Part shown: one piece after another, positions 1-52,202 of the stretch
Layout: each line of letters opens with the position of its first letter
How positions within the stretch are numbered: position 1 is the first letter of the stretch
Source of the DNA: Cryoendolithus antarcticus
Taxonomy: Eukaryota > Ascomycota > Dothideomycetes > Cladosporiales > Cladosporiaceae
Assembly (NCBI GenBank): GCA_002077065.1
Contig: NAJO01000037.1
Span: 1 to 64,000, forward strand
Direction of reading: 5' to 3'
DNA: 64,000 nt
Program-made: the position numbers and the translations under genes
Notes under the pieces: generated by a model
Databases searched by the model: none
What the model was told of the DNA's origin: nothing
Seen by the model: only the letters and a program-made list of their open reading frames with translations

Positions 1-126
1 AACCCTAACCCTAACCCTAACCCTAACCCTAACCCTAACCCTAACCCTAACCCTAACCCTAACCCTAACCCTAACCCTAACCCTAACCCTAACCCTAACC
101 CTAACCCTAACCCTAACCCTAACCCT
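1..126. repeat. Telomere repeat array
   Basis: Uninterrupted tandem copies of the hexamer AACCCT (21 units), i.e. the C-rich strand of the TTAGGG telomere repeat used by filamentous fungi. The C-rich strand read 5' to 3' at position 1 means this is a left chromosome end and that the window starts inside the telomere. The array stops abruptly at the first non-repeat base after the last unit, with no degenerate variant repeats, so the junction to subtelomeric DNA is sharp. Confidence 0.98.
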
Positions 127-626: not shown

Positions 627-712
627 GAGATAAAGAGTAGAGAGTCATAAGTAATTAGCTAGAATATTACTACTATATAGGAATAGTATATTTATATCGA
701 AAATCGTAGGTA

Positions 713-734
713 ACTATAGTTAGCTAACTATAGT
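713..734. repeat. 22-bp perfect palindrome in the RIP zone
   Basis: Positions 713-734 read identically on both strands (ACTATAGT-TAGCTA-ACTATAGT). Parts of the same word recur just downstream near 777-800, suggesting a small family of AGCTAACTATAGT-like words in this remnant. Function unknown. Confidence 0.7.
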
Positions 735-1030
735 ACCCTTTCGGGCGCTAAGGATCTAACGTTTAGTAAGAGCGATAGCTAACTATAGTTATAGTTATTT
801 ATAGATTAGTTATAAGGGTCTATTTAGCGGCGTTAATACGACCTAGTCCTTTTCTAAAGGTTAAGGTATTCGCTCTAATCTCTTTAACTTACGTAGTCTA
901 GACGCTAAAGAGTACCTATATTAAGACGTTTAGTAGTAAGGATAAGGCGTTAATAGTAATAACGACTACTAGGTAATATTTATAATCCCTAAGTTCCTCG
1001 ACTTTATATAGGAAACTTATTTTAATAAGA

Positions 1031-32680: not shown

Positions 32681-35600
32681 ATGCAGGTGTTATTCTACAT
32701 CAACGCTAAGTGGAAGTGGTTCGCCATACTGCATCTTCTCGTGTACCAGACAGTCGCGATCCCAAGCACGGAACATTTGCTTCATGGCTCCCAGTATCGC
32801 TGGGCTGCCAGCGAACCGTACCGACAGCAACCGCGGGAGACGGCGACTGGATCCTTGCACTCCCGTCGGCCATCCTCAGACCCTGCGCCGAAGCAAGGCA
32901 CCGGTTCAAGCACTTCGAAGTCGTCACCAACCTTCATGAACGTAACGGAAGATCCAGATTACACTCACTTGTTCCTTGTGGCCGGTTACATCTTCCCTGA
33001 CGACGCCCCCTTCGATGAGCTCACTCGCGGTAATCCATGGCGTCATGCGGACGAAAGGTCTCCTGACCGATGGGACTCCCAAGAGATGGCGAAGTACAAC
33101 ATCTCCATTGCCCAATTGGGCGTCGGTTTCAACTGGGATGGAACCAGCGAGAGCATTCAGAAGCGAGGTTCGAAAGGAGTCAGTATCAATAAGGTCTCGG
33201 GATGGACGAAGTTCAAGGACTGGATTATGGGGTACGTTTGCGTCCATCGCGCTTCTAGCAGGGCCCTCCCCGCGTATTCAACAGCACACTACTGACGTCG
33301 TTTTATCAGTTGGCGTAAAAGCAATTTGCTCACCTTGCCCTAAAGAGTTCGGAGATAAGGATCATCGAGGTTCCCATCGAGGTACCCGTCGAGAAAACTC
33401 GTTGGCGTACTCGGACTCGGACTCGGACCAAGGTCATTTACACGGAGCGCGGGCAAGCGCGGGTTGCGGACGCCGTCTCGAACTTTCATCGTGCCACTGG
33501 TGAAGGGCCCCTACCGGTGGAGCGTATTCCCCACAATCCTGGCAACACCCATTGGCAGACGACCGGCGAGAGGCCGTTTGATGCTGGATATTTTGCCGAC
33601 AATGAGGGCTCCCAAGAGTCCCCGATTCGCTCGACCCAGCCAGATCAGCAAAAAGTGTACGAAGCGCAGCAAGAACATGAAAAGTCTTCTTACCAGCACG
33701 ATAAGAAGATCGAAATGTCGGAGCAGAAGACGCTCGAAAACAAACATGAAATCCAAAAGTCCGAGCACGCTGAAGTCCAGGAGCGCACGCAAGCAAAGAC
33801 TGCAACCGGGAATGCCGAGAAGTATGAAGCTAAAGCTGCAGAGCTTGATAAACAGGAACCTAGGCCTCGCACCTTGATCGACAAATATCTGGAAGATGCT
33901 AAGAAGGAACGCGCAAGGGATAGAGAGGCCAACCAACGCGGGGACCAAGCCAAGCAGAAGACCACTGAACTCAAACAAGAAGGGAAGCTGCTCGACGAAG
34001 CTAGCACTAATCTGAAGTCAAGCTCTGAGCAGCTGAACAATCAGGGTGCTGGGATTGGCGAGGCTCAGAAGTCCTTAAACGCTGGCAATGTCAATGAGGC
34101 CAACAGCAAGCTCGAGGTCGCTCGCGAGCACGGCCAGCAAGCCTCAGTGTCTGATGAGAGGGCAACGTCGAAAATCAACGAGGCTGCGGTCCGCAAACAG
34201 GATCGTGTCCAACAGCAGCGTCCCAACCCTGAGTCGCAGCCTAGCACAGACCAGGAGAAGGCCGACAAGCAGAAGGCCGACAAGGAGAAAGCCGACAGGG
34301 AGAAGACCGACAGGGCGAAGGCCGACAAGGAGAAGACCGACAAGGAGAGGGTCGACAGGGAGAGGGTCGACAGGGAGAAGGCCGATAGGGAAAAAGCCGA
34401 CAGGGAGAAGGCCGACAAGCAAAAGGCCGACAAGCAGAAGGCTGACAAGGAGAAGGCCGACAGGGAGAAGACCGACAACGAGAAGGTCGGGAAGGACAAG
34501 CCAAAGCCGGAAAGTCCGCCCGATGGACCACCTGCGACACCTGGAGAAGTTGCCGAGGTCGAACGTGCGGTATCACGAGCGAGTCAACTCGAGAGCGAGA
34601 TCACGCGCATGCACCAAGTGATAGCCACAGACAATGCGAATGCTGAAGCAGCGGGTCCGCGGATAGCTGAGCTGCAATGGCAGACGGCGGACCTCAGAGC
34701 TCAACACGACAGGTTGCAACAAGAGTACAGGAGAGCGCCAGATATGGAGAAAATGCGGATCTCCGGCGAGAAACGCGCGGTCACGGCTCGATTGGAGGAT
34801 ACACGGCTGAATATATTCCACGAGCAGCGAGTCATTGAGAACAACAAAGAGTACCACGGGCATCACCAGGACGAACTTACTGGTTATCAGAATGAACAAG
34901 CGAAGGTCAAGTCGAAGCTAGACCGCATGAACCCGAAGGCTGTGAAGTCGGTCAAGGACGCTCACATGACTTCAGCGACGAAGCTAGGTGGGGAGATCGA
35001 AGCGATCGAGGCACGAATGCTTCAAAACCTGCAGCGTCACAACGAGGTCATGGACACAATCTGGCGTCAGATACATCCAGATGGTGACCAATACCGCCGG
35101 GCCATCGGTCAGGGCAAGACGCTTACAGCGGCCCAGGCTCGGGAGTGGGACGCAGTCCAGGCACGGGAGAAAGCAGCAAAGACCGAATTGATCGATCTCT
35201 TCAAGAAACGGCAGGCTTCACGTCTCGAGCGCGCGGGCATCCGCACGGCTTTGTACAAGGCGGATCCTGCCGCAGCCTTGAACTTCGACGTGGAGTACTA
35301 CCCCAAGAACGCAGCAAAAGGCTTCTACCCATCGGCTGGCGAGTCCGGAATCCTTGATTTGGGTATCGCAGAGGGAATCCCACTGACGGTCGATAATGAT
35401 GGGAGACTTGTCAGACCAAAGAGCCCAATGATGGACCACGATGGTCAAGGCACCCGCTTCAATGAGATGAAAGTCAAGCAGTGGGAGAGGTTCAAGGAAC
35501 TCCACCCTGAAGCTGACGTCCCTGAGCCTAAGATCGGCGGATTGGATGGCGCCGATGAGCCGGACGTGCTGAGGCACAAGCAGGCAGTTCGAGCACGAAT

Positions 35601-36392
35601 GAAATTCGGCGATCTCTGGAATCCGGATGGCCATGTCCTGGAGGCTTTCAAGACTAAAGACGCGATGTACCTGAGACATCCCACTGGAAAGGTTTTCTCG
35701 AGTCCACTGGAGGGATCGACGGCTAGTCTGCAGCGGGTCTTCCGGCTCGTGGACGCGGTTCCTGAGGGCGCTGTGGAAATCGCTGCCGGCGCACGTCTCA
35801 TAACCACAGGGACAAGAATGACGGCTACAGTTGCGAGAGCCCTCACCGCTGCAGGGGTCGTATTGATCCCGATCGCCGAAGTCGCCGTCGCTCTCGTGAC
35901 TGGTATCATGGTTGTTATGCAAGCCGTATCCACGGTGCAGCAAATCGCAGACGGCCACTACGGCCAAGCGGCTATTGACCTCTACATAGCGGTGCACGAA
36001 ATGGTAGACCCATCGTTCGCCGCCATCATGCTGTTGTACCATGTCACGAGATTCATCGTGGACTACGCTCAGAAAAAGCATAGGGAACACAAGTGCCACG
36101 ACGCCTTGAACGAGGAGTACAAGACCGAATACAAGAAGAAATGTGGATGGAGGCCACATCATGTTCCGACAAGAAAGAAGGTGAGCCGTACCTGAAGATT
36201 CCACTCGCCGCTTCACTACTGACTTCATTCTAGATGTGGTCCGTAAAAGCGTTCGAGTGTAAATATTACACGGAGAAAGACTATAAGAAGGCGCATCTAT
36301 TGAAGCAGGACGGATGGGACAGGCTGCCACAGATGCCGCAGTTTGCGGCATCACACCCAATACAACATGGAAAGAAGCCATGTCAGGAGTGA
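32681..36392 (+). CDS. Paralogue A: large secreted protein with KADKE repeats and Cys-rich C-terminus
   Basis: First member of a three-gene family. Exon 1 (32681-33231) encodes a signal-type hydrophobic start (KWFAILHLLVYQ region), then a domain with NVT and NIS sites. The main exon runs from about 33348 to 36180 and the last is 36234-36392, joined by a clear GTGAGC...TTCTAG intron; about 1180 residues. The middle is coiled-coil-like and holds 16 pentamers of the type KADKE/KADRE at 34258-34497. Then come a conserved region ending PEGAVEI, an Ala/Val-rich hydrophobic segment (35758-36060) and the C-terminal module EHKCHD...YKTEYKKKC...KMWSVKAFEC...KDYKK...KKPC. The exon-1/exon-2 acceptor is uncertain: the nearest good one (33309) leads to an early stop, so an AG at 33347 is used here. 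Function unknown. Confidence 0.7.
34258..34497 (+). repeat. 16 tandem 15-bp units (KADKE pentapeptides) in paralogue A
   Basis: Exactly 240 bases coding for 16 charged pentamers of the pattern K/R-A/T/V-D-K/R/N-E/Q/A. The codons are nearly uniform (AAGGCCGACAAGGAG-like) with A/G differences that swap Lys and Arg, so the array is recent or kept homogeneous. It should form a highly charged helix. The minus strand is open across it but encodes only a mirror-repeat. Confidence 0.9.
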
Positions 36393-37399
36393 TCGCAATA
36401 GTACGTCTATTGCTTCTTACGACCGTGATGGCTAGCTGATATACTCTAGCGCTTGCTACTCGGCGACTGGCGACAGGGATCAGCGACTCCTTGAGTGACT
36501 GTCAGGCACCGCATGACCAGGCAACGAGCGGCTCCCGCGGCGAGGTGGATACAGAGCCTTGTGATCAATATCACTTGATTCAGGCTCTGTTGTGCGATCC
36601 TGGTGTGCAAGCTACAAGGCAGTTGGAGCTCTGCATGGGCTAGTACAATCACGCCGTGGGCAAAGGGCGAGATCGCCATGCGTGACCGTTTACCGCACAG
36701 TTCTGAGTTGTGGATACGATCGTAGCTTGGTATGACGTGAGATGAGACTTGACCTTCGCGAGGGGAAAGTGATCGCATATACTGGATGAGTGCTTGTGAT
36801 GGGAGATCGTACTGTAGATTCGGGCGCGTCCATCAGAACAGGATATAGCAATACAATACAACAGCTGTAAGTGATGTGCGTCGATCGTAGAGTTGTCGAG
36901 CAAGTGAAGGCATCGAATGCGTCGAACGCTCAAGTCTGCGCTTCTCTCACAGTCCCGGATGCATGTAGAGCTTCTGCCGGACACGCTGCATCATTCTATG
37001 CTGCGCTGTCGCACTTGTAAGAATGCAGGGACGCCAGCGTCAAGGTCGGACCTGTCTCTCATGAGTAGTCTAGGCTGGATTCACTATAACAAGTAACCGT
37101 AGGGGAGCATTGGAGCATTGCAGTCACCTCGGAGAAGCAAAGATACTCGAGACGTGCTGCCATATGGCCCAACTTTCAGCGCCAATGACGCCGAGCGCAG
37201 TCGCTACCAAATGGCCTCTTCACCCAATGTCCTCGATACGTACGAAGACTTCGCTCGCTCCCCTCGCTCGACTCCAATCCCCCAATTTTCCATCTGACAC
37301 ACAAATAACAGATGACGAACCGAGCCCAAGTCACTCCAATCACATGCTACGCATGGATCGCAATAGTAGCTCCGTTGCGGCACTCCCCAGCGGAACGAC
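36393..37399. other. 1.0-kb intergenic between convergent A and B
   Basis: 3' ends of genes A and B face each other across this stretch. No coding feature recognised; expected to contain both terminators. Confidence 0.45.
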
Positions 37400-40255
37400 C
37401 TAAGCCAACATGGGGCGACCAAAGGGATGCACTGGGGAAGTCTGCGAGTCGTCTTCACCGCGAGACTCGTCGACTGGCTGATCATGCCATTCTTGAGCTA
37501 GCGAACTCAAGTCCCGCTTCATCGCCGGTGTGCCGTCCCAGAACGTGAACTCACATGGCGTCGTACCCTTCGGTATGAAGTGTGTGTTGACAAACCTGTG
37601 ATCGTCTTCAAGGTCTTCCGCACCCTTGGAATTGTTCAGCTTCTGGTCATGATAGTCCTTCTCGGTGTGAAGACGCTCGCAGTCGAATGCGATTGCCTTC
37701 CACATCTTCGTTCTGGTCGGGACATCTGCGGGCGGGCGGAGGCAAACTCTCTGGAACTCGGTCTTGTAGTCTCTGTTCAAGTGCTTGTGACACTTGTGCT
37801 CCTTTACGGCTTGTCGTATGGCACGGAAAGCGACATCGCCAATGATGAAGGACGCCTGTACAGTCCAGCCAATCGGCCCGGAGAAAGACATTGCTGCATT
37901 GAGGCCGCCAAGAAGTCTACCTGTAAGCACAGCCGCTTCCACGACTCCGGTTCTGATGATGCCTTCGGCTGTCACAGCTATAGCGGGCTCGGCAAGTCGG
38001 AGAGCGGCTACGGCTGCTTCTGTAGTGGCCAAAGAACCCTCCGCGAGGCCGAGGGTGGCCTCCATCGCAGAGATGCCGATGGGAGCGACTTCTGCGCCCT
38101 CAACAATGGCCATCGTTGCCGCTTCTGCTCCCTCAGTCGCGGTAACGGGAGCTAGAGCCCCAATGCTATCACTGATCTCGATCGCACCTTCAGGAATACC
38201 ACTCTTCATGCCCTGGAGTACCTGCTTACTCCCGCTTGCGATCGCTTTGAATGCTCTGCCCGCTTTGTCCAGGATGTACTTGTCACCCTTGTGGATCCAC
38301 GTGCGTGAAGCCAGCGAACCTTTGCGATAGCCAGCTAGAAGTTCTTTCGGTAATTGCGTTATAGGCGCTTTGCCTGCCGCTGTCAAAGCTCCGTGCTCGA
38401 AGAGATTGACGGCGCCATCGACAGCATCAGCGGTGCCGTCAAGATTCGTGACAGATGGTGTCTTGAATTCAGGTGGCACCTTGTAGTGAGTGCCAGTGTG
38501 CAACTTTGCCGCGCCCTCGTTCGTGTAGAAAGGTCCGCCTTTGCCATCCTTCAGGAACAAGGATGCACCTTTCTGCACCTGGGTGCGCTCGTCTAGCAAC
38601 CAGTTCAGCTTCTTAAGAGGAGACATCTTTGCGACTTCAGGTTCAATCGCTGTCCGCGGTCCATGTTCGACCGCTTTGTACGCACTGAACCATAACCGTG
38701 TCTCTGTAGGATCGGCCGCCAGCAATCTGCTCACTGAATTCTGACAAAGGCCATGTAAACGATCGATGTCGTTCAGCAGCTGCTTGTTTCGAGATAACAC
38801 CTCGCTCATTTCAGTCTTCACTTGTTCAAGACGCTGAAGCTGCTCAGCCGTGGCACCGCCAGTAGCTCCTTGCGCCCGCCCGAGTGCATCCAATTCCGGG
38901 GATAGTTTGTTCTCGAGCAGCGTCTCTAACTGCTTACTTTGCTCCAGAGCATTCTGTAACTCTCCTTCCTGTACGCCAAGCCTTGTTCTCTCCCACGCTG
39001 CTTGCGTCTTGTCCGAATATACTTCGACATTCTTCTCGATATCTTTCAGCCGAGCAGCCATGCGCCCCTCATCAATTTGGAAAAATTTCGTATTGCGGAC
39101 GTCCATTTCATTGCGCGCCTGGAATGCGCTAGCAACAAGTTGCCTGTCCTTTACCCCAGTCTCGAGCATCACCCGTTCCTTCTCCAGAGACTCGAGCTCC
39201 AGTTTCCACTGTGCTGCATTCGTTTCCTTCGAGTGAGACATGTATGCCTCCTGCCTCGAAAGCGCCTTTTCCCATTCCGGCAGCTCGAGGGATGCCTTCT
39301 TCATCCGGATCTTGCGTAGTTTAGTCTGTTCCTTAATGGATTCCAATTCGCGACGCGTATCATCAAGCTTGTCGTACAGCTCCTCTCTCTCCCACGACTC
39401 TGCTTTCCATGCCTCTGCCTCGGCGTCATAGCGGCCTTCGGGGGGCCCAAAGTCGCTTGATGAAAAGTCTTTCTGCTGCACGGGAATCGGAAGCTGTCCG
39501 GTCTCCTCAACATCGTCGGAAGCCTCTTCAATGGCAATCCGCCCTTCTTGAGTGGTAACCCATTCCTTTCCAGAAAGCCCAGTTCCCTAAGACTCGGTTC
39601 ATCAATCCCAAAGATATCCTGCAGTGCCCCCAATACCCTCGGGCTCGGTTCACCAATCCCAGCAAGATCGAGCGTCGGCGTAGTCTCTCCGGCAACCTCG
39701 AGGATTCCTTTCCTAGGGGCAAGAAAGTCAGCACTGCATCAACGCACGCATACGGAAGCGCGTCACGCTGCGGCGGCCGACAGAACACTGATTGACTCAC
39801 CTGCCCTTGAGGCGTAAGAAGTTCTCAAAACGACGCCATGTGTTGCTCAAAAACAGTTTCCATCCGCCCTTCGCACCTCTTGCACTCAGTAAACCATTGA
39901 CTCGGCCACCTTGCGTCAAGACCAAGAGTAGATGGTATACTGTTGGATTGTGTGCACCAAGAGCGTCTGGCGACCATACTGTTGTGTCGTTCGACTTGCG
40001 ATGGACTTTGCCGCCCGTGACATTGATAAGGGCGCTCTGATCCTCAAAACTATAGTAGTTGACAAAGATGACGTGGGTGATGTTGGCAGCATCTGTGAGC
40101 TCTTCGAGGGCGCTGCTGTGATTGCTCGCTTGGATCTCAACGTTCCTGGTACTATTGTCTCTGTCGATGACAACGGGCGGTTGCTCGCCGGTGGGTAGGG
40201 CAGCGGTCGTGCAGATCACCCGCAGAATCACGAGCAACGTGACTTTTAACCGCAT
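37400..40255 (-). CDS. Paralogue B: large secreted coiled-coil protein with Cys-rich C-terminus
   Basis: Three exons, 40255-39801, 39712-39637 and 39586-37400 (introns 88 and 50 nt, all phases consistent), 905 residues. Starts with a signal peptide (MRLKVTLLVILRVICTTAA), then the shared N-terminal domain ITHVIFVNYYSFEDQ...NVT. From about residue 200 a long acidic/basic coiled coil follows (ELYDKLDDTRRELESIKEQ and similar). Then come a region ending IPEGAIEI, an Ala-rich hydrophobic stretch of about 130 residues, and the C-terminal module KEHKCHK...FQRVC-RPPADVPTR-KMWKAIAFDC...KDY...DDHRFVNTHF...TTPCEF. Gene B gives the clearest exon structure of the three and guided the reading of A and C. 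It has no pentamer or proline repeats. Function unknown. Confidence 0.8.
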
Positions 40256-42029
40256 CGTGGCTACGGACGCGATTGTGATATCAGTGTGGCAAGCTAATAC
40301 TCAATCATCGGTGAACGGCGACGATCGATATCATGTACCCAGGAAGCAATGGAAGGTGATGATCGGGAATCGACAAAAGGTGTTGAGTGGCCATGAGGGA
40401 TGCTAGCTTTTGTGGAATGTATAGTGCGAAGAAATATTGAAGAAAGTTTGGCATCTCGAGATGCGCGTCCGCGATGATTTGGACGGAGCATGGTGAACGA
40501 CTTGGGTATGACTTACAACCAATAGATGGATCCTGTATCCTCGATCGCTCAAGACACAGTCAGTAATACACTAGTACCGCAATTCCCTAAGGTCACCACA
40601 TAGAGCCTCGTCGATAGCAGTCAAATGGCCCCCCCGACATGACTGGCTGTAAGCATATGGCTTTGTACCGAGTCCATGGCGTCGAGAATCCCGATGAGCC
40701 TTTGGAATTCCATCGGAGTAGTCGTTTTAGGGGCGCAGGTCGTGGTGACAAGCTGAATAAATGTATCAGGGCAGGGTCAAATGCTGAGCCGAAGCGATAG
40801 GTGGGCACGACGCAGCCCGTCGGAGAGAGGAAATTAGCGTGACCAGGCCGGAGAGACGAGAGAATCTGCAATGCTGTCGAAAATCGGTGCGAGACTTACG
40901 TTCGCGACAAGTCACGATAGTCAAGTCCGTGGCCAATCGGGTTCGCATCTGGGACTTCTTTGGCTCTCCCAGTTCTCCCATTTTCCGCATTCCAGAGTCT
41001 CGGTTCCCCCTGTTGTCTTGTAATCTAGGTCGCTGCTGCTGTGAAGCGCGGCTTGAATGTATCTCTTGTAAGACCTTCTGAGCTTTGCAAGAGCCCAGAT
41101 CACGTCATAGAGAAACGCATCACCCTTCGTACTTTCAGTCGACGTGTGAAGAGATGTATTGACGACGCACAATCCTGCGCGCGATTGGAACGGTCAGCAA
41201 AAGTAACCAGTGCTGACTTTGAGGCTTTGCGAGAGTTGGCACCGCCGGCCCGCTTCGCGATCTCAACAGTCTAGCTATTAGACCACTCGACACGCGCCTC
41301 GACACCATCACAAAGTACAAAACCTACATTGACCCACTGCCTCGGATTGACAGTCAGCAGACGAAGCTATGTCTGCGGCTGTCATCATGCAGAATCCGCG
41401 CACCACGCTCTGGATCGAGTGGCATCCATCGTCTGGCACCTGGTCAGGTCGAGTCCGATTGGAATACGAGAAAGACAGTGCGGACTGGGGACACTTCGAT
41501 TGCCGCTATGCAGAGCTGCTTCTTTCCACAGAGTTGGCTTGACTGCTGGGAAGGTCATTACGACCCTCCGGCACCTTTCCTCTACAGCATACCATTTATG
41601 CCGCGCGGACGAACGCGGTCTTGGTACCCGCGCGCTAGGTCGCCCTACGTCGATTTACCTTTATCGAGGCTGATTGGCAGTACTTGACAGGAAAGTTGGG
41701 TGCTTGAATCTCATCTACTGGAGCCGCGGGTCTGCCTCACAGAAAAGCTAACGTGGTGCTTTTGGTCGAGCACCTATGGCTGCCAGCAAATAAAAATGTT
41801 GTGGATGGTAAGTTGAACGAGACTTCATCGTCGCCACTTCTTGTGCACGCATTTTCGTCTGGCTCAACCACCTCTCGGTGGCTGTTCCCTATTTCTTCCA
41901 ATTGTGTCTCCTCGTCGAGAATTGATGTCGTATTCGACTGAGCCCTCATTCTCGCAACTTCGCCACGGTAAATGACTGAAGAGCTTCCGCCCTGACTTAA
42001 CTCAAGATCCATTCATCTCAGTCTCGACC
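40256..42029. promoter_or_regulatory. 1.8-kb divergent intergenic region between B and C
   Basis: Genes B and C are transcribed away from each other, so both promoters lie here. It is long for this genome. Open frames of up to 115 codons exist but none resembles a known family or the three paralogues. No repeat recognised. Confidence 0.45.
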
Positions 42030-45000
42030 ATGGTCAAGTGGCTGGCGTTCGTATGTCTAGTCATCTCCGAGGCACTTGCGTTACCTCGCATCGAAAATGG
42101 ACTCATTGATCCCGAGCACGACTTGATTACGCACACGTTCCGCCACGGTCCATTAGGTGAGCATGCTGGCCAGAAGCTTGGCGCTCGAAAGGCGCCAACA
42201 GAGGCTACACTACAACCACGAGATGTGTCCAGTCTCGACAGCAACCTCACGTCCTCACCTGAAGTAACATCAATCGTTGTACTCTGGGTCTATGTCTTTC
42301 CCGACAATGCAACTCTCCAGACTGTCACATTCGGGCGTGAGTTCCGCGCAGCCAACGACTCATCGCCAGAGACCGGTTGGGCACAACACTCTTTCGGCGA
42401 CTACAACATTACCATAATTCCGTACGTCTTTGGTACCTTGAGCGGCAGTGCTCACGCGCCTGGACATCTTGTCGAAAGGGGCTTCGGAGACTTCGTCAAT
42501 CTATTCGTTCGTGGATGGAAGCGGATTGGCAATCGAGCCAGATCAATTGTCGAATACATATTCGGTCTCAGCCCGTAAGTTGTTCCCTTTCCGTCCTTGA
42601 CGACACTCTTACTTCTCTAGAAAGTCTGAGACGTTCCTGCGATCTCATCTTCGCTCCCAATGCAGCGCAATGGCGATGTGATGCCGGAGGAGGAGGGCGC
42701 GGATTTCGCTATCTGCTCTGGCAGTATAGCTCTGTCCCGGGAGCCAGGGCCATTGGACACGCCGTCGCGGCTGGATGCATAGGAGCGCTCCCTTCAAACA
42801 AGACAGTGTGAGAAGCACAGCCAGATCACAAGAGCTGACTTACTCAAAGCAAGGTAGTCTCCGAAACTTACGAAGCGCAGGACTTCAGCCACCTCGAATG
42901 GGCCACCACTGAGTCAGATGAGAGTATCTTCTCCGAGCAAGCAAGGCGAAGGCTGCCGGAAGGTCTCTCTCAAACGGGCCAACGGCCTCGCGCCGTCAGT
43001 AGTCGACCAATGCGTGTCGATAGCTCCGGCTCTGTCGAAGAGTTCGAACCGGCCGTGCGCAAATCCACATTACCACGCGAACAGCAGAATACGAAAGCGC
43101 GATTTACGCCCAAGGCCAAGGCGGAAATGCAGAAGACTCAGAGGCAGATGCAGAAGCAAGCAGCAAAGGACAGGGCGGCGACGCGACAGAGACTCAGGGA
43201 ATCTAAGAAGTGGTGGCGCGAGGACAATCCTGAACTACAGCGGCCACAGCCTCCGGGCGAGCAGCCACCAGCTACAGACCCACCTGTCGATCATCCGCCA
43301 CCTGCTCAACCTGAAGCCCCTCAATCGCCGCCTGGTGAAACTCCTGTCAATCACCCACCACCTGCTCAGCCTGAAGCCCCTCAAGCGCCGCCCGGTGAAC
43401 CTCCTGTCAGCAATCCGCCACCTGCTCAGCCTGAGGTCCCTGCTTCGCCGCCCGGTCAGCCTGACGTGCCTCGCCCGCCGCCCGGTCAACACGAGGTCCC
43501 TCGTCCACCTCCCGGTCAACCTGACGTCCCCAAGGCTCCTTCTAATCAACTTCCTGTCAATGACCCTGCGCCTGCTCGACCTCCTACGCAGCAGCCACGT
43601 CCACGTCCCGGCCAACAACCTCCGTGGCGTCCAAATCAGCCACTGCCGCCTTCCGGACAACAACCACCTCCCGGGCCGGTGAAGCAACCCCCTACAGGAC
43701 CTGTGCAGCAGCCAGCTCCAGGTCCTGCACAGCCCGATCGTCTGTCTCCGCAGCAGTTGCAAGCGATTGATAGGGCATTGGATAATGCAGAGGCTGCAAA
43801 CATACACGCGCTAGATCGCGATGCTAGCGTACGTACGGGTAACCGCAACTTGCTAGAAGCGCAGAGATATTCGCGCCAGATGGAGGGCGTGGCCTCGGAT
43901 GCTCGTCAATCACTCCACGCTGCCACGTCCGAGACGGAGAGGTTGAGTTTCCGAACAGCTGTTGAGATTGCCGAGGGAGAAGTCGCACAGGCTGGCCGCG
44001 ACATCGCCGGGGCCCAAGGAATCGTTGATCATATGATCGGAGAAGGTGCTCATTTTCGTGATCTTACTGCGAGAGTAGGGGCTGAGGTCGAGTCGTTGAG
44101 ATCTGCAAGCGCGTCCAATGTGGAACAAGGCGTACAAAGGCTTTCCAACCTGATCGACGACATCAGAGGCAGTATCGATCGCGACTTGGTGTGGCAGGAT
44201 ACACCGGAATTTCCGGCTGAGCCACCACGTTCACCGAGTCCCGGTGGTCATCCCGAGACGCCAGCACCGCCCACGCAAGATTCACCTACCAATCCAGGGC
44301 AGGAGCGTCCTCCTACTGACAATCACCCTTCTTCTCCCAACAACGAGCCACCTATTGACAGTCACCCTTCTCCTCCCAACAACGAGCCTTCCGCCAACAA
44401 TGGTCCTTCTTCTCCAAACACAAAGAACCCTCCTGGTGATCACACTCCTCCAGGCGATCACACTCCCCCTGGAGATCACGCCTCTTCCGGCGATCGCACG
44501 CCACCGAAAGGAGAACATCCACCTGATCCTCCAAATACGCCAATCACGCCGCAGGAGCTACGGACTATCCAAGAAGCCGAAAAGGGTATCGAAGCCATGA
44601 AAACGAACGCCTTGCTACACGAGACAAACGCTAAGTTTTACGGAGCAGACCTGGACAAAGCCAACACAGCTCTCAGAGACGCCGAGACCGCCCTCAAGGA
44701 AGCTGAAACCAAGCTTGGGAAGTCGATTCCTGCCGAGAAGCCAGCACTAAACAAGCAGATCACGTCCCTGAAGGAGACGATCAAGAAAGCTACTAACACT
44801 GTCGATCGATATCAAGCACATGTTGAGTCCGAAATGAGGGAGGTGAGTCGCTATACCGAACTGCAGCAAAGGACCAGGGCGAACATCCAGGACCTGAAGG
44901 CGATGCGCAACCCCGGCCAGGCTGCAGAGGAAGTTAACCACCTTGTTGATACTCTCAAGACAAAGGACGCAGATATCGCAGAGATGCAGACGAGGATACA

Positions 45001-46426
45001 AAATTCCCTGAAACATCGAGACCAGATGAACGCCGATTTCGAGAAGTTTGAGAGACTCGATGCAGCTGAGCGTGGCAAACTCGACATGCTCAAAAAGGAC
45101 AAGGGCGCACGGGTAGGCCTTGAGACAGACGCAAAGATCGAGACCTCGAAGGCAAACAGGGTAAAGTATCAGGCCGAGATGAAGAAATTGGATGATATAC
45201 ACACTCTAGACAATCTAGCCGCCGAGCAAGATACAGTCAGACTTGTTGATCTGCAGAATGAAAGACTGACATCACTGCAAAGATTGGAAGTTTTCGATAT
45301 CAATGAAGCGGCTCAGCATCCTTTCCGATCCGGGGATCCTGTTGCCACGCCCGCCGAAGAGGTCGGCCTGTCGAGACCGGCGACGCCTCAGCGGGCACCT
45401 GCACAAGCTGGACGGAATGTACACTCTCTCACCGATGCGGATGTTCAGCAGCACTTGGGATCGGATGATGGACGGACTCAGATCCCGGCCCAGACGGACG
45501 GTGCAGCTGATGAAGTAGCCGTTGATCTGTTCAAGAACGGGAAAGCCACCGAGGCCGCGGCGAAACCTGTCACTGAAGTCTTCAAAGCCGGAGCTAACGG
45601 CATCAAAACCGGCGCAGCTGAAGGCTTTCTCGAGGGCTGGCGCACAACCGCTCAAGCTAGTAACAGACTAGTCAGTGCTGTCGGCAACGGCGTCAAGGGC
45701 GCCGTGAGATTTGGGAGAACTATCGTTCAGCCCGCTAAAGCCATCACCGCCGAAGCCTCTCAGGCTATTGGTAAGACAATTGCTGGCGAGGTAGTTGGGG
45801 AAATCGGCGGTGAGGTGGCAGCCACTGTAGGCGCCGAAGTCGCGGGCACTGTAGCTGCTGAGGCAGCTGCTGAAGTCGGTGTTGTGGTTCTCGGCGAGAC
45901 CTCTGCGGCCGCTACAGCCGAGATACTGGCATCCGCAGCTGCGCGTGGTGTAGGCGTGGCAGTCGGGGTAATGGTGAGAGGGGCCTTCGAACTAGTCGCC
46001 GGGCCTATTGGAATGGCCATCGGCGTCGCATGGATGGCCGGCGACCTCATGTACCACACCATCAAGGCCAAGGTCATGGAACATCATTGCCACGACAAGG
46101 TCAATAAGGACTACAAGACTGAATTCCAGAAAGCCTGTAACCGGCCACCCGCTGATGTGCCCACAAGGCTGAAGATGTGGAAAGAAGACGCTTTCAAATG
46201 TGACAAGCTGTGGACTAAGAAAGACTACAAGCATCTGAAGCTTAAAGACGAGAGAGGCGCTCAAGACTTGAAGGACGATCATCGGTTCGTCAACACGCAT
46301 TATATCGCGCCTGGACAGAAGCCGTGCGACTTTGGCTGGTATGCGAAGCGGGATCTGGATGCTATTTATGTGCCGCACAATGTCACTTTGATACTTGGAG
46401 ATGGGACTTATCATTTGCTGATCTAG
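42030..46426 (+). CDS. Paralogue C: large secreted Pro-rich/coiled-coil protein with Cys-rich C-terminus
   Basis: Exon 1 (42030-42574) encodes a signal peptide (MVKWLAFVCLVISEALA), the shared domain (VTSIVVLWVYVFPDNAT...YNITIIP) and ends at a GTAAGT donor. The main exon probably starts at 42850 (acceptor after CTCAAAG, phase 2), joining a KVVSETYEAQDF stretch that aligns with B exon 2; total about 1373 residues. Other acceptors at 42621 give either an early stop or an extra 60-residue segment, so this junction is open. Then: basic linker, Pro-rich repeats (43240-43735), coiled coil, second Pro/Asn/Gly-Asp-His repeat tract (44215-44545), coiled coil, Gly/Ala-rich hydrophobic segment (45540-46070) and the module EHHCHD...FQKAC-RPPADVPTR-KMWKEDAFKC...KDY...DDHRFVNTHY...QKPCDF. 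Function unknown. Confidence 0.72.
43240..43735 (+). repeat. Proline-rich repeat tract in paralogue C
   Basis: Imperfect repeats of the pattern PPPAQPEAPQ-PPGE and PRPPPGQ-EVP, in DNA units of about 60 and 30 bases. The tract is Pro/Gln-rich, expected to be extended and flexible, and has no counterpart in A or B. Confidence 0.85.
44215..44545 (+). repeat. Pro/Asn/Gly-Asp-His repeat tract in paralogue C
   Basis: Contains copies of PNNEPPIDSHPS-like and then GDHTPP units (the latter three to four times in a row, 15-18 bases each). A second disordered linker between two coiled coils. Confidence 0.8.
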
Positions 46427-46639
46427 GCGACCTGACATCCAGCGTTTCTTGATCTTTAGAGGTACTAGTTGCGTGCTTGGGAACGCAAATACTGCAGGAG
46501 ATTTAGTGTGGGAAGAATTTTCAAATCGCAGATTGAGTAGTGATATTCGATAAGTGCCTCTACGATCTCTCTACCGCGGCCGATTGCCTCTCATCGCCTA
46601 GGCCCTTGTCGACTGTCTTCCGTGGCCCATCAGTACCTA

Positions 46640-47281
46640 TCATTCATTCCGATACCTCTCTACCCAGAGTTTAAACCACTTGTGGCAAATAGCCTGGTGG
46701 TCCGCGGTAAGCTCCTTTAAGACACTTCCATCATCCTCTAACACGCCCTTCTGCGACGGACTGACTGCGAACGTCACCAAGTCCACTCGCCGCTTCCCCT
46801 CCTCCCGACTCACACCATCCCCAACGAAGTACGGCTTCGCGACTTCCCAGTGCTCGTCGAGGTGCTTCTTCAACGTACCCTTGATTGTATAGCTGAAGGT
46901 CACCTGAAATGACTTGAGACTCGTGGCTCGCCGCAGGAGCCCGTAGCACTGCTTGAGGAGTCCAGGGGTGCTCCTACCAATCGTGAGGTGCTGGATGAAC
47001 TGCACATTCCCGGCGATCTGGGGGATCCAGCGATTGAAGTCTTGCATCGAGGCGAAGGCGAACTCGCGATTGTCGCAGAGAAGGGCCTTCGCTTCGGAGT
47101 AGACTAAGCGGTTGACAAGGAGTAGAGCTGCATCGCCGCGGCAGATAGTTCCTTGATATAGAGACGATAGGCGTTGAGTCGAGATATTGTCTTTGCTGAT
47201 CGTAATGTTCGTGGAGGATCCAGAGAAGACGTGATCATAGATCTTGACCCGGATCTCGGGAGGCAGCTGCTCGAAAGGCAT
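46640..47281 (-). CDS. F-box-like / 2EXR-type fungal protein (copy 1)
   Basis: 213 residues from the ATG at 47281; the frame stays open further upstream but the F-box-like motif starts at once (MPFEQLPPEIRVKIYDHVF), favouring this start. The motif LPPEIRxxIY with a following CRGDAALLLVNRLVYSEA helix is the hallmark of the large fungal family of short F-box-like (2EXR) proteins, with unknown partners. The C-terminal half has a GTLKKHLDEHW helix and ends without further motifs. A paralogue lies at 51330-52202 and the two share motif order along their whole length: a CRGD-type helix, MQDF-x-W-PxIxxN, and FVGDxxSxxEGxRRVDL. Confidence 0.75.
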   Translation of the reverse strand: MPFEQLPPEIRVKIYDHVFSGSSTNITISKDNISTQRLSSLYQGTICRGDAALLLVNRLVYSEAKALLCDNREFAFASMQDFNRWIPQIAGNVQFIQHLTIGRSTPGLLKQCYGLLRRATSLKSFQVTFSYTIKGTLKKHLDEHWEVAKPYFVGDGVSREEGKRRVDLVTFAVSPSQKGVLEDDGSVLKELTADHQAICHKWFKLWVERYRNE

Positions 47282-48444
47282 CTGAGGGGAGGGAGCAATG
47301 ACATAGCCGCTCAAGCCGAAGGGAAAGGTTGCCTTGGTGAATGTCAGTATATAGCACTGAGTCAAATGAGAGGGTAGGGGCAGCGTGCATCGTCGACGGA
47401 GAAGGGCAAGCTCGAGACAAACTCCAGCCTTTTTCTGTACGTTCGCGTTGCGTGATCATACTGCGAGGGTATTAGTCTAGGCTTGGAATATGCGCGCCCT
47501 GTCTCTTCAGATATCTCTAATGTTTCCAGCGCCTCAGAGTCCCCAGCTTCGCCAGTGGCTCTTTGTGATACGGTACAAAGCCTGGGTTGTAGTTTCTTGT
47601 CCTGAACACGTTGCAACATGCGGAGAATTGTCCCAGTCTACAAAGAGGTACGGTGGCTGTGACTTACCACTGCGTGCCGCCCATTACCACGGACGGTAGA
47701 GCTGACCGGTGGTGCTCTGACTATCGTAGCTGTCTTACAATCGCCAGTACTCGTTGAATATAATAGGTAAGGATGCGTATTCGATGTATCGTGCAAGGAT
47801 GTATAAGAGGTGTCGTTACCTTCAAGCGGTATCGCAAACTGCTAGAGGTGCCTAGTGTTGTAGGGAGTGTATATAGGAGAGTGTCGAGAAGAGCCTCTAA
47901 GCTCGCGTCTCAAGAGATGCTTACAAGTCGGAAGCAGGCTCGTGATAACACCGATGTGCTAAATGTTACCTCTTGATTGTCTTGTCTGGACATGCGAAAG
48001 ACCATCTGGAAGGGTGAAGGCTCGTCACGAGTGTTCCTTGTTCCAGAAACAACAAGTGAAGTGTTTGGACACGTGCCTCCGAGTTGTATCTGTGTGCGAG
48101 ACTTTCTCCATTCAGTCGTCGTCAAGCTTGCATCAATGTTGAATGCTCTTGTCGCTGTGCGCGTCGAGCAATCCATATCTTTGGCGAAGCAAATTACTAT
48201 GCTTGCTTGTCTCGCGATCGAGTGACCACGCACGTACGTCGATGCACGAATCGTGGTCCAACAGGCCCAGAAATGTTCAGACAAGAGCTGAGCTACCAAT
48301 CGCGAGGGAAGTGTGAAGACGAACTCGTGAGATGCTTCATATCGTCCGCAGGTGATAGTGAAGTCTTTGAGATGAGTAGGCTGTGGCCACGAGTCCATGT
48401 GGAGATCCTATGGCTCAGCGAACGTCCCATTCGAACGCCTGCGC
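47282..48444. other. 1.2-kb intergenic, part of a duplicated segment
   Basis: Upstream of F-box-like copy 1. Words such as GTCGTTACC..TC, GTGTTGTRGGGAGTGTA, GCTCGTGATAACA and TGTCTTGTCTGGACATG recur in the same order upstream of copy 2 (about 52600-52795). No intact gene recognised; open frames look like chance. Confidence 0.5.
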
Positions 48445-49033
48445 TCAAGCCTCCAATCTTAGCGTCAACACCAACAGCGTGATGTAAGCGGCGACACTCA
48501 GGCTTGTGAGGACAACGACAACATTACCACTAGTCCGGAAGCTGCCAGAGTCAGTCATTGCCATACCTGTATCGCTCTGCGGACGAAGCATCGTACCGTT
48601 TCCTGCTCAGCCCATCATCGCCGACTTCACTGAAGAACTGGCGGTTACCCTGCATGCGCCGAAAGGCACTCACGCCGAGTACGCCAGCGCCGTAGACTGC
48701 GAACAGTGCACCTGCATGAGCTGTCAGCTCGAATGTTCAGGTGACTTCTACATCATCAGGTCAGAGTCGGACGTACCAATGCTGTAGAACTCTCTCGTGA
48801 AGATCTTGAGCACGATTAGAGCGAAGCTGAATTGTCCGAGCGACGTGCGCATATATGCCCCTTCGAAGGTTCGTTGAGCAGCGCGAATCTCCACGAGCTC
48901 GGAGGGTGTCAAGATGACCGAGCGGGCACGATGAGTCCGCAGTGTGTAGCGTTGTTGGGCATGTCGGGTATGGAGATGGGTCAGCTGAGCCCGGCGGACT
49001 ACGGATGGGGTGTGGGGGTGTTACCTCGAACAT
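48445..49033 (-). CDS. DUF202-domain small membrane protein
   Basis: Four exons, 49033-49025 (only nine bases), 48984-48777, 48720-48649 and 48602-48445, total 148 residues; every phase agrees and each junction has GT..AG. The core is RAAQRTFEGAYMRTSLGQFS, a DUF202 signature (aromatic, Arg-Thr and RTSL), followed by two membrane segments (about residues 56-68 and 74-90) and, at the end, a third (VVVVLTSLSVAAYITLL). DUF202 proteins are small inner- or vacuolar-membrane proteins of unknown function; a fungal member (Vtc1-like) acts in polyphosphate synthesis, but the RTSL motif alone does not prove that role. The tiny first exon is the weakest point; a longer first exon extending upstream is possible. 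The gene was found only by joining short exons. Confidence 0.72.
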
Positions 49034-49775
49034 GGTCGATGAGGCTGGTGGCGTTCAAGGTGGGGGCATTATGGGAGGAGATTGGAGGGAAAGGGTCGCC
49101 CACGTAGCCTACCAGTTATTGAGGAGGTGCAAGGTGGTATCCGAAAGATATGGACAGCAAAACGCTCTTCGATGATCAACAGCGGTCGCACAGCATCAGA
49201 TGTCGTCAACAAGCCAAGGTCTTGCGAGTCGCGATCTTCAGACCTCAGCTTCACTTTGATTTACTCTCCTTCGTAGAGACAAGTAATCAGTACTGTACCC
49301 AATGTGCCGGGACATCGCTCCCCCACCCATGCACGGCAGGGATGTGAGGTGGGCACATCTAGCAGGCAGGTCTCGGGCGTGACGGATGGGGCCGTGGCGG
49401 TGGTCCAGTAAAGCTCGACCCCCTCCCATCCCACCCCCTCTCTGCACACTTTTCCCGCAATTCACTTCCCCCTCCCTCACTGCACCTCCTTGCTACTACT
49501 GTCACCAGTTACTTCATGGTTGATATCGCTCATAGTCTTCCTCACCTTACTATCACCGCGCAAGAAGTCAAATTTCACACGACCCCCCCTCCACCTTCCT
49601 CAATCTGTCGCGGCTTTCGCACCTTCTTCGCCGGGCGGCAGCTTCGAGACTTCGACAGCCTCCTTCGCGACTGATCAGACGGGGACCTCTTCTTCGCAGA
49701 TCACTTGCTCGACATCTGCTTGATACAGCTCCAACTTCGCACTTGCTTGGCGCCTTATCCATACAGCACTTCGAC
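49034..49775. promoter_or_regulatory. Divergent region DUF202 / RNase H1, with CT-rich tract
   Basis: 740 bases between divergent genes. A strongly pyrimidine-rich tract lies at about 49410-49610 (many CCCTCC, CTTCCTC runs), characteristic of core promoter or 5' untranslated DNA in filamentous fungi, ahead of the RNase H1 start. Confidence 0.5.
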
Positions 49776-51134
49776 ATGGCTGCTGAGATGGATGCACCTA
49801 CCAATGGCTTCACCTCCGTTAATAACGGCATCGCGCATCCTCCCAGCCCTCCCTCCACCATAGGCAGCGCTGGCACTAAACGCAAGCGCGATGCCAAGAC
49901 ACCTGCTCCAAAGTTCTACGCTGTCCGCACCGGCAAGGCGCCCGGCATCTACCACACTTGGACCGACTGCCTCGACCAGGTACGCGGCTTCCCGAAAGCT
50001 GTGTTCAAGTCCTTCACATCTCTCACCGAAGCCGAGAGCTTCTTACACAACCAGCAAAGTGCTGGTGGGGAGGGGAAGGTGTCAAAATACTATGGAGTTA
50101 GAAGCGGACGCACTCCAGGCGTGTACACCAGCTGGAGCGATGTCCTCGAGCAGATCACGGGCTGGAAGGCACCCAAGCACAAGGCATTCAAGACGAAGGG
50201 TGAAGCTGAGCAGTGGGTCGCGGAAGGCACGAACATGAGCTACCCAATGTCGGACATCGCACTTGAGAGCGTTGAGTCACTCGAGGGTCCCTCAGCAAAG
50301 AAGTCGAAGACCACAATCCGCCTCAAGCCTTATGGTGGCGTCAAGACTGAGATCTCACCCACCCCTCTCGACCCTTCGGCATACTCCCCTGGTTCTGCTC
50401 CTTTGCCAACGTCGACAGAAGACGGCTTCGACCCGAATATCACACTTGACCCCATCACCAATGGCGTCCGCTACAAGACCGCTACTGAACGCGCTCTCCT
50501 CAAACCTCAAGCCGTTCGCCCCGCAAAAGACTCCTGGATCAAGATCTACACAGACGGCTCAGCCCTCGCGAACGGCCAAGCACATGCCATAGGCGGCATA
50601 GGCATCTACTTCGGACCTGGCGATAAGCGCAACGAAGGTTCAGCCCTCACTGGCTCTCGTCAGACGAATCAGCGTGCCGAGCTCAGCGCCATCTACCGCG
50701 CTCTCGAGCTCGCTCCACAAGACCGCCGCATCATCATCGCCTCTGACAGCAACTATGCCATCAACTGCGTCACGATATGGTTCCAGAAATGGCGTTCAAA
50801 TGGGTACATCAACGCCCAAGGACGCGCAGTGGAGAACAAAGATCTCATCATCAAGATCGTGGACGTGCTGGAGCAGAGGTTCAGGACTAATCGTCATCGC
50901 ACTGATGCTGAGGAGGATGAGCTGGCCGAGGGCGGGCATTGGGAGCGTGGGCCTGCGGCTGTGAAGTTCGAGTGGATCAAGGGGCATGCCGGGAGCGAGG
51001 GGAATGTGGAGGCGGATCGCTTGGCTGTGGCGGCTGCCAGAGAGGCCAGAGATGCTAGGGATGCTGCAGGTGTAATCGCTGGTGGCGTTGTGGAGACGGC
51101 GCAGGCGGTGCAGGCGACGAACGGGGCTGCTTGA
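49776..51134 (+). CDS. Ribonuclease H1 with two N-terminal hybrid-binding domains
   Basis: 452 residues, single exon, start ATG at 49776 (CGACATGG context). Two hybrid-binding (caulimovirus VI/HBD) domains at about residues 40-90 and 105-155 share the pattern FYAVRTGKAPGIYHTW and YYGVRSGRTPGVYTSW, each ending in a Trp/Phe-rich alignment. The catalytic domain follows at about 270-430 with the four acidic residues in YTDGSA, RAELSA, ASDSNYA and EADRLA, and HAIGGIGIYF between. RNase H1 removes RNA from DNA:RNA hybrids in nucleus and mitochondria. Most eukaryotes have one HBD; two copies occur in some yeasts and fungi. No mitochondrial signal is obvious from this start; the short Met-rich start suggests nuclear location. 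Confidence 0.92.
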   Translation: MAAEMDAPTNGFTSVNNGIAHPPSPPSTIGSAGTKRKRDAKTPAPKFYAVRTGKAPGIYHTWTDCLDQVRGFPKAVFKSFTSLTEAESFLHNQQSAGGEGKVSKYYGVRSGRTPGVYTSWSDVLEQITGWKAPKHKAFKTKGEAEQWVAEGTNMSYPMSDIALESVESLEGPSAKKSKTTIRLKPYGGVKTEISPTPLDPSAYSPGSAPLPTSTEDGFDPNITLDPITNGVRYKTATERALLKPQAVRPAKDSWIKIYTDGSALANGQAHAIGGIGIYFGPGDKRNEGSALTGSRQTNQRAELSAIYRALELAPQDRRIIIASDSNYAINCVTIWFQKWRSNGYINAQGRAVENKDLIIKIVDVLEQRFRTNRHRTDAEEDELAEGGHWERGPAAVKFEWIKGHAGSEGNVEADRLAVAAAREARDARDAAGVIAGGVVETAQAVQATNGAA

Positions 51135-51329
51135 GTAGTCGATTACAGCTGTAGAGGGATGACGAGGGTCACAGAGTGCATTATATGGCGTTTCACGGGC
51201 TATGCAAGCTTAATGATGACACGAAAGCCGTCGTAAAGAACGCAATGGTAATGGAGGCGGAACTACCGCCCTCGGCAGGGAGTTGAACGAAAAGTATAGT
51301 CTACGTATGCGAGATAGCTGGAACAGATG

Positions 51330-52202
51330 CTAAAGCTTGATGTCAATGGCCTTACAGCAGGTGACATTCCTGGAACATGGATGTTGCACGATGTCACTAA
51401 TGATGCAGCCTCTATTCTCTATTGCCTCGCCACAAAATTGTGCTATGATCGGCGGGTCAGCCTTATATCCAAAATTTACTCCCTTCAACTCCCACGCCCA
51501 CCCCTTCTTCTGCCCTCCTTTAGTCCCCTTGATCCCCTTCGAGTCCGCATAGGTAGGGATCCAGTCCTCCATGATCTTGCGAATCTCCTCGCGATCCTCA
51601 GCACTGATCTCCTTCATGACATCCTCGCTATCGTTCGAGTCCAGAACGCTCTTTTGGGAAGGCCCAATGGTGAAGATCATCAGATCGACGCGTCTGCGCC
51701 CTTCATCCTGGCTTATGTCGTCTCCAACGAAGAATGGCTCGCCCTTGTTCCATTGGTCGGTGATATGGTCGCGCAGAGCGGCTTTGAATTTCGCGCTCAG
51801 AGCGACTTGGACTTGTTGGAGACGACCTGATGGCACCTTTGCGAGGATGCCGTAAAAGTCCTTCAATTGCTTGGCGCCACTCTTGCGAACCGTAATGTGC
51901 GTGAGTAGCTCCACGTTACTACCGATCCGTGGGACCCAGTGGATGAAGTCTTGCATGGCCGGGAAGATGAATTCGCGATCCTGGTACATGAAGTCCTTGG
52001 CTTCATCGCGAATCATGCGGTTGACGAGGAGCGGTGCGAGGTCGCCGCGACAGATGTGCTCGGGCGTTGTTGCGACTCTGCCGCGGATGGATTTCTGCGT
52101 AGTATATGTTGTATATGGGCTTGCGAAGTCGGCTCTGGATACAGTGATGCTCTTACGAGAGTGCGAAAAGAGATGCGTATATATTATGTGGCGAAGCTCC
52201 AC
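51330..52202 (-). CDS. F-box-like / 2EXR-type fungal protein (copy 2), 5' end unclear
   Basis: 290 codons from an LPVELRHIIYTHLF motif, the same family as the 46640-47281 gene and most similar to it (CRGDLAPLLVNRMIRDEA, MQDFIHWVPRIGSN, FVGDDISQDEGRRRVDL). No ATG stands in frame before the motif: the frame is closed by a TGA a few codons upstream, so the true start is probably in an upstream exon or the copy has lost it. The C-terminal tail beyond the RRVDL region is longer than in copy 1 and ends after several Cys. Role unknown; F-box-like proteins usually present substrates to SCF ubiquitin ligases. Confidence 0.65.
   Translation of the reverse strand: MELRHIIYTHLFSHSRKSITVSRADFASPYTTYTTQKSIRGRVATTPEHICRGDLAPLLVNRMIRDEAKDFMYQDREFIFPAMQDFIHWVPRIGSNVELLTHITVRKSGAKQLKDFYGILAKVPSGRLQQVQVALSAKFKAALRDHITDQWNKGEPFFVGDDISQDEGRRRVDLMIFTIGPSQKSVLDSNDSEDVMKEISAEDREEIRKIMEDWIPTYADSKGIKGTKGGQKKGWAWELKGVNFGYKADPPIIAQFCGEAIENRGCIISDIVQHPCSRNVTCCKAIDIKL

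What the first reader, a model, noticed from the sequence alone, without database searches (positions are those of the whole stretch)
32681..46426. A cluster of three large secreted paralogues of an unrecognised family (genes A, B, C)
Seen in the sequence: three genes in 13.7 kb with the same plan. Each has a signal peptide; an N-terminal domain with an aromatic-F-x-D core and N-x-S/T sites; a long variable middle; a region ending PEGA(I/V)EI (clear in A and B); an Ala/Gly/Val-rich hydrophobic stretch; and a C-terminal module with four cysteines, a KMW-type motif and KDY. The ends are conserved and the middle is not. Inference: this pattern (conserved targeting and membrane parts, fast-evolving middle, tandem paralogues near a telomere) is what one sees in effectors, adhesins or polymorphic toxins. 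I know no named family with this architecture.
Basis: partly seen in the sequence, partly recalled or inferred. Interest (0 to 1): 0.88.

Follow-up and report, generated by a model that had tools for sequence, protein, structure and literature searches.

The report
Orphan modular secreted proteins, Antarctic fungus
Three neighbouring genes near a chromosome end of an Antarctic rock fungus encode large secreted proteins of an undescribed family, whose shared front end carries different, anciently diverged tail ends, a pattern that resembles interchangeable toxins or recognition proteins but whose function is untested.

Summary
A (32681-36392, +), B (40255-37400, -) and C (42030-46426, +) share a signal peptide, an N-terminal domain followed by an intron, a variable helical or proline-rich middle, an Ala/Gly/Val-rich segment and a C-terminal module with four invariant cysteines. 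No library gave a match above cut-off; fold models were poor (43, 46, 52). The genome is Cryoendolithus antarcticus (doubled, 47 Mb). It holds at least nine N-domain copies: A, B, C, their homeologues, and E, E', F, which join the same N-domain to a different C-terminal module. B carries an apparent frameshift; A', E, E', F look broken. In 17 flank ORFs homeologues differ at dS 0.30-1.05; A/A' reach 1.5-1.9 and the 3' ends of C and E about 1.9, while 5' ends of B, C and E show 0.13-0.16. A and C lineages are shared across species labels. dN/dS is 0.10-0.43 per part: no sign of positive selection. Best reading: secreted modular proteins with an exchangeable functional tip, perhaps membrane-active antagonism or recognition proteins (0.4). 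Closest rival: surface-anchored recognition/adhesion proteins.

The parts
1..126 (.). telomere repeats (CCCTAA)n at the contig end
   Evidence: read directly
32681..36392 (+). gene A: exons 32681-33231, about 33348-36180 (acceptor uncertain; the deposited model lacks 4 residues there), 36234-36392; 1176-1180 aa
   Evidence: deposited protein B0A48_14109 (P0005)
32681..33231 (+). A signal peptide and N-terminal domain, ends at a phase-2 intron in my model
34249..34486 (+). 15-bp tandem repeat (Lys/Glu/Ala/Asp pentapeptides) in A middle
35860..36063 (+). A Ala/Gly/Val-rich hydrophobic segment, one transmembrane-grade stretch
36082..36389 (+). A four-cysteine C-terminal module, split by intron 36181-36233
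37400..40255 (-). gene B: exon 40255-39801, intron, exon from 39712; apparent frame disruption near 39510 against the homeologue; body ORF 39586-37400
39801..40255 (-). B signal peptide and N-terminal domain
37403..37804 (-). B four-cysteine module plus tail
42030..46426 (+). gene C: exons 42030-42574 and 42850-46426 (intron 275 nt), 1373 aa
42030..42574 (+). C signal peptide and N-terminal domain
43283..43722 (+). C proline-rich tandem repeats (60, 30 and 24 bp periods)
45752..46048 (+). C Ala/Gly/Val-rich, mildly hydrophobic segment, helical in a low-confidence model
46076..46423 (+). C four-cysteine module plus tail
38300..42200 (.). stretch covering most of B and the 5' end of C where the coding parts have lower dS between subgenomes (0.13-0.27) than any of 17 flank ORFs; its overall DNA identity (0.82-0.94 per 500 bp) is like that of the best flank bins

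Best explanation
A, B and C belong to a family, so far seen in three strains, of large secreted modular proteins. Shown by sequence: a common N-terminus with a signal-peptide-like start, an N-domain and an intron after it; a long poorly conserved helical/proline-rich middle; an Ala/Gly/Val-rich segment; a four-cysteine C-terminal module; and, at a second locus, the same N-domain with a different C-terminal module. Inferred: the N-domain, which carries N-glycosylation sites, serves folding or docking at the cell surface, the middle is a stalk, the Ala/Gly/Val-rich segment can enter a membrane, and the C-terminal module (probably two disulfides) is the working tip. The proteins act on the membranes or surfaces of neighbouring cells (rival strains, other fungi or other members of the rock community), in the manner of toxin or recognition proteins with an exchangeable tip. 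Old tip lineages persist in parallel while the front ends of B, C and E are homogenised or inherited normally; in A the front end is old too.
For: Common plan and paralogy. Nine N-domain copies; six carry the cysteine module and E, E', F another one. In P0005 and C every cysteine of the mature chain sits in the module, and sequons sit mostly in the N-domain. Divergence rises from 5' to 3': C dS 0.15 in the first 60 codons, 0.83-0.96 in the next 120, mostly above 1 or saturated in the body; E/E' 0.16 in the N-domain and 1.9 in the C-terminus; B 0.13-0.27, then 0.72-1.04, against 0.30-1.05 in 17 flank ORFs. A and A' lineages each have orthologues in other strains at 76-95% but are 37-44% identical to each other; C matches Oleoguttula P0009 at 86% and the body of its homeologue C' at 49%. 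C/C' C-terminus dN/dS 0.10. B and C types lack a transmembrane-grade segment, so they are probably not anchored.
Against: No assay, expression or structure. Fold models were poor (N-domain mean pLDDT 49, C-terminus 37), so membrane insertion is only a hydropathy argument, with an insertion scale recalled from memory. A-type proteins may be plain membrane proteins. The B and C gradients flank one shared tract and count as one event; with E that is two, and A shows none (5' dS 1.5). The second module type is known only from copies that look broken. Deep A/A' divergence could be reciprocal loss of old tandem duplicates. No immunity-like partner gene was sought. dN/dS below 1 gives no sign of an arms race.
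Confidence: 0.4

Rival explanations
1. They are the fungus's own surface-anchored recognition or adhesion proteins: N-domain outside, long stalk, hydrophobic hairpin in the own membrane, cysteine module as a membrane-proximal cap; diversity reflects self/non-self recognition or attachment.
For: A-type proteins have one or two transmembrane-grade stretches; repeat-rich middles fit a surface stalk; old lineages shared across species labels are expected of recognition loci.
Against: B and C types lack transmembrane-grade segments; no known adhesin domain in Pfam. No GPI-signal prediction was made.
Confidence: 0.33
2. They are cell-wall or spore-coat structural proteins of rock fungi, with drifting low-complexity middles and no antagonistic role.
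For: dN/dS 0.10-0.43 per part without positive selection; middle rich in Lys/Glu/Ala or Pro.
Against: Frequent damage (B, A', E, E', F) and lineages older than the subgenomes are unusual for structural proteins (inference); found in only three strains at the sensitivity.
Confidence: 0.15
3. They are fungal heat-labile-enterotoxin-type ADP-ribosyltransferases, as the UniRef name of A ('Enterotoxin') suggests.
For: The name shown for P0005.
Against: No Enterotoxin_a match in the six exon pieces or in P0005-P0008 and six other proteins or pieces; no PF01375 match in the genome (but its control rang nowhere, so weak). The conserved N-domain core is about 70-100 residues, small for that fold (inference).
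Confidence: 0.02
4. Non-functional, decaying relics: open frames persist by chance in a doubled genome.
For: Five of nine copies in the genome look broken (B, A', E, E', F).
Against: A, B', C and C' have long open frames (about 900-1370 codons), constraint is strong at the C-termini of B and C (dN/dS 0.17 and 0.10), and long orthologues are deposited from other strains.
Confidence: 0.05

Closest known systems
Bacterial polymorphic toxins (CdiA, Rhs, LXG types; recalled, not searched)
   Same: Conserved delivery end, variable or exchangeable C-terminal module, clustered paralogues, broken remnants
   Different: Eukaryotic, classical signal peptide, no recognised toxin domain; an immunity partner was not sought
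Fungal heat-labile enterotoxin family (Enterotoxin_a, PF01375; PMC7341126 and PMC12099005, passages read)
   Same: Large secreted, expanded fungal proteins; database name of A
   Different: No Enterotoxin_a match
Pore-forming colicins (recalled)
   Same: Long helical middle and hydrophobic helical segment near the C-terminus
   Different: A cysteine module follows; no Pfam match
Fungal adhesins/flocculins (recalled)
   Same: Subtelomeric, signal peptide, N-terminal domain, repeat-rich stalk
   Different: No known adhesin domain in Pfam; C-terminal cysteine module

Membership tests
Polymorphic toxin system | One conserved N-terminal part joined to different C-terminal modules | tested here: met
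   A/B/C types versus E/E'/F type; E, E' and F look broken, so this rests on remnants
Polymorphic toxin system | C-terminal module is a recognised toxin domain | tested here: not met
   No Pfam match above cut-off, no NCBIfam and no PDB-sequence match for the cysteine module
Polymorphic toxin system | Adjacent immunity gene | not tested
   Families were listed for 10 flank ORFs only
Polymorphic toxin system | Kills or inhibits neighbouring cells | not testable with these tools
   needs an assay
Heat-labile enterotoxin family (PF01375) | Enterotoxin_a domain | tested here: not met
   genome search negative but its control was silent
Surface-anchored adhesin/recognition protein | Membrane or GPI anchor in all members | tested here: inconclusive
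   A types have transmembrane-grade stretches, B and C types do not (simplified scale); GPI not predicted
One family A/B/C | Significant similarity in both ends and an intron directly after the N-domain | tested here: met

The most novel reading that the evidence does not exclude
A eukaryotic counterpart of polymorphic toxins: a fungal family with a common secretion/docking front end and exchangeable C-terminal tips, in which front ends are homogenised by gene conversion while several tip lineages older than the species and subgenomes are kept, for killing or recognising other fungi inside rock communities.
Probability: 0.2. Interest if true: 0.85.

Novelty: new variant of a known kind. Interest (0 to 1): 0.55.

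Why it matters
If the reading is right, it adds a sequence-orphan, modular secreted family to a group of fungi whose interactions inside rock are little known, and gives a eukaryotic case where the working end of a secreted protein is diversified separately from its delivery end. It also offers two compact domains (a glycosylation-site-bearing N-domain and a four-cysteine module) for which no structural precedent was found here. Because C. antarcticus and the Oleoguttula strain each hold both lineages of A, the balancing-selection question becomes directly testable by resequencing a few isolates.

Tried and rejected
Enterotoxin/ADP-ribosyltransferase: suggested by the UniRef name of P0005, not supported. 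Positive selection in the middle: not shown; dN/dS of the middles is 0.28-0.36 and, for A and C, dS is near saturation, so the ratio is unreliable there. An impression that A's second intron is more conserved than its neighbouring exons was not turned into a test. RIP as cause of the stops: A, B, C and A' show no RIP signature; among the stretches scanned it is confined to the outermost kilobase. A missing A homeologue: my first idea was wrong; the gene on C123 at 35.4-39.3 kb is A', collinear with A. One 14-kb inversion: also wrong; two adjacent stretches are each inverted in place. Structure: N-domain model mean pLDDT 49, Foldseek best E 1.5, none at 0.001; C-terminal model mean pLDDT 37, not searched. 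Homology between the cysteine module and the E C-terminus: hhalign found none (one E sequence only). Horizontal transfer, from the 95% match of A to Oleoguttula sp. CCFEE 5521, which NCBI places in another order: a mislabelled strain is at least as likely, since A'-, B- and C-type proteins of that strain carry neighbouring locus numbers on a contig of one length; I could not test housekeeping genes. Third protein search: only 2 proteins, and it did not list P0001 or P0002, known members within its length range, so its negative is weak; searches scored only the about 8000 candidates sharing most words. Papers: the capped listings showed no paper on this family; PMC5502844 read in part 1 of 2 of its text; PMC10739867, PMC11412873, PMC12560822, PMC12099005 and PMC7341126 only as passages.
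Full report
WHAT AND WHERE. The window is the first 64 kb of contig C81 of a 46.97-Mb, 149-contig genome and starts with telomere repeats. A protein from a contig of 124,851 bases, the length of C123, is deposited as B0A48_17905 of Cryoendolithus antarcticus, and gene A as B0A48_14109 on a contig of 480,423 bases, the length of C81. The genome of this Antarctic endolithic fungus (formerly Rachicladosporium antarcticum CCFEE 5527) was reported as 47.4 Mb, 18,781 genes, Illumina, 41x (PMC5502844, part 1 of 2). A Tibetan Rachicladosporium sp. has 24.6 Mb (PMC12560822, passages), so this genome is about doubled; the many paired matches and the collinear C123 agree. I call the partners homeologues without having tested how the doubling arose.

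THE THREE GENES. Gene models were made by reading splice sites and comparing homeologues. A: 32681-36392, three exons, 1176-1180 aa; C: 42030-46426, two exons, 1373 aa; B: minus strand 40255-37400, two exons, with an apparent one-base frame difference near 39,510 against B'. One search, with a part of the B body as query, returned B' but no protein identical to B, which fits B not being annotated as an intact gene. In my models the first intron of A, B and C follows the N-domain in phase 2; the acceptor in A is uncertain. There are no transcript data.

PARALOGY. The C N-domain finds A (E 1.3e-8), B (3.6e-5) and two further loci. The B body finds C at 1.1e-48, and the C C-terminus finds A at 5.9e-9. 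The 11-row N-domain alignment has 9 invariant columns; at the invariant Asn a sequon is present in 9 of 11 rows (B and B' read NPT). The 9-row module alignment has 26 invariant columns, among them the four cysteines; KMW is in 8 of 9 rows. In P0005 and C the mature chain has no other cysteine; P0006 and P0007 have one more each. Two disulfides are likely (inference).

FAMILY SIZE AND MODULARITY. One search finds nine N-domain copies: A, B, C, the homeologues A', B', C' on C123, and E (C81:249.9 kb), E' (C83:302.2 kb) and F (C81:246.1 kb); the search gives lower bounds. Six copies carry the cysteine module. E, E' and F carry another C-terminus: a hydrophobic stretch, cationic amphipathic stretches and a conserved tail. 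The cysteine module and the E C-terminus do not align. By reading, A' has a frame difference and two in-frame stops, E and E' stops and frame differences, F a stop and an interrupted N-domain. Long orthologues of A' are deposited from two other strains (P0007, P0008).

NO KNOWN FAMILY. Pfam: no match above cut-off for 6 exon pieces, 10 proteins or pieces, 9 modules or 11 N-domains. The sub-threshold matches have E 0.013-2; two recur, Pentapeptide_2 in P0007 and P0008 (a short repeat, E about 0.05) and COQ9 in 2 of 9 modules (best 0.11). NCBIfam: none for 9 modules; whole proteins were not scanned (one search failed). PDB by sequence: none for A1 and A6 at E 10, one match at 0.63 in the middle of A4. 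Protein searches: 4 hits at E<=0.01 for B residues 330-700, 4 at E<=1 for A residues 1-270, 2 at E<=1 for the C-terminal profile; all ten are from C. antarcticus, Rachicladosporium sp. CCFEE 5018 or Oleoguttula sp. CCFEE 5521. These searches need shared exact words, and one search missed known members, so the true range may be wider. Both structure models were poor; Foldseek gave nothing at E<=0.001 for the N-domain. The UniRef name 'Enterotoxin' for A is not backed by a domain match.

HOMEOLOGUES AND DIVERGENCE. Outside the family genes, C123 aligns with the window at 77-90% DNA identity per block. Two adjacent stretches, window 37.4-46.4 kb (B and C) and 46.6-51.2 kb, are each inverted in place. 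The middle of A and of C do not align at the DNA level. Of the 32 ORF pairs listed, I kept 17 as flank controls (dN/dS below 0.35); I dropped 7 in or antisense to the family genes and 8 with high or undefined dN/dS or antisense to another ORF. Their dS is 0.30-1.05. In the family: A/A' 1.5-1.9 in the parts compared; C N-domain 0.58 (first 60 codons 0.15, then 0.83 and 0.96), C body windows 0.90 to saturated, C C-terminus 1.88; B N-domain 0.13, next windows 0.14-0.27, last windows 0.72-1.04; E/E' N-domain 0.16 and C-terminus 1.9. B and C are divergently transcribed, so their similar 5' parts form one tract; E is independent. Gene conversion is my inference: overall DNA identity of the tract is no higher than in the best flank bins. 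dN/dS per part is 0.10-0.43, up to about 0.7 in single short windows: purifying or relaxed, not positive.

SHARED OLD LINEAGES. A (P0005) matches P0006 (Oleoguttula) at 95%; A' (P0010) matches P0007 (5018) at 89% and P0008 (Oleoguttula) at 76%; between the lineages identity is 37-44%. C matches P0009 (Oleoguttula, partial) at 86%, the C' body at 49%. B' (P0001) matches P0003 (5018) at 94%; the B tail is nearest to Oleoguttula P0002 (85%). NCBI places Oleoguttula in Mycosphaerellales and Cryoendolithus in Cladosporiales; either the strain is mislabelled or genes moved.

MEMBRANE. With Kyte-Doolittle and a simplified insertion scale recalled from memory, P0005 and P0006 have one, P0007 and P0008 two stretches of transmembrane grade; the B types (P0001-P0003) and C types (C, P0009) have only mildly hydrophobic stretches apart from the signal peptide. 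A fixed anchor is plausible for A, less so for B and C.

HOW IT LIKELY WORKS. Shown by sequence: modular build, constraint on the tip, old tip lineages. Read by eye: secretion signals. Inferred: docking by the N-domain, stalk, membrane entry by the Ala/Gly/Val-rich segment, action by the cysteine module. I give 0.4 to antagonism or recognition by a secreted, membrane-acting protein and 0.33 to an own-surface anchored recognition or adhesion protein.

Noticed in passing
window 37400-46430 and 46640-51190 versus C123:39804-48711 and 49145-53782: Two adjacent stretches near the telomere are each inverted in place between the two subgenomes; the first holds B and C, the second a 2EXR-like gene and an RNase H gene.
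   Followed up: partly
window 1-1300: The outermost kilobase is AT-rich with a strong RIP-like signature (TA/AT 1.82, (CA+TG)/(AC+GT) 0.14); the other window stretches scanned are not.
   Followed up: partly
window 1200-2445: The gene next to the telomere looks by eye like a MACPF-type protein; the ORF 1831-2445 gave no Pfam match at 0.01, the upstream part was not scanned.
   Followed up: no
window 51333-52229 and 46643-47455, minus strand: Two 2EXR-like genes (below Pfam cut-off) beside the cluster; the first matched only the region of the second one's homeologue, at 35%.
   Followed up: no
L024 and L025 (C81:about 250.7 kb, C83:about 302 kb): E and E' share a conserved stretch after the N-domain (GSDIVISQAGTGSTANTAISITEN) of unknown meaning, by eye reminiscent of amyloid-type motifs (recalled).
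   Followed up: no
window 55796-57520: Velvet-factor gene about 9.4 kb beyond gene C.
   Followed up: no
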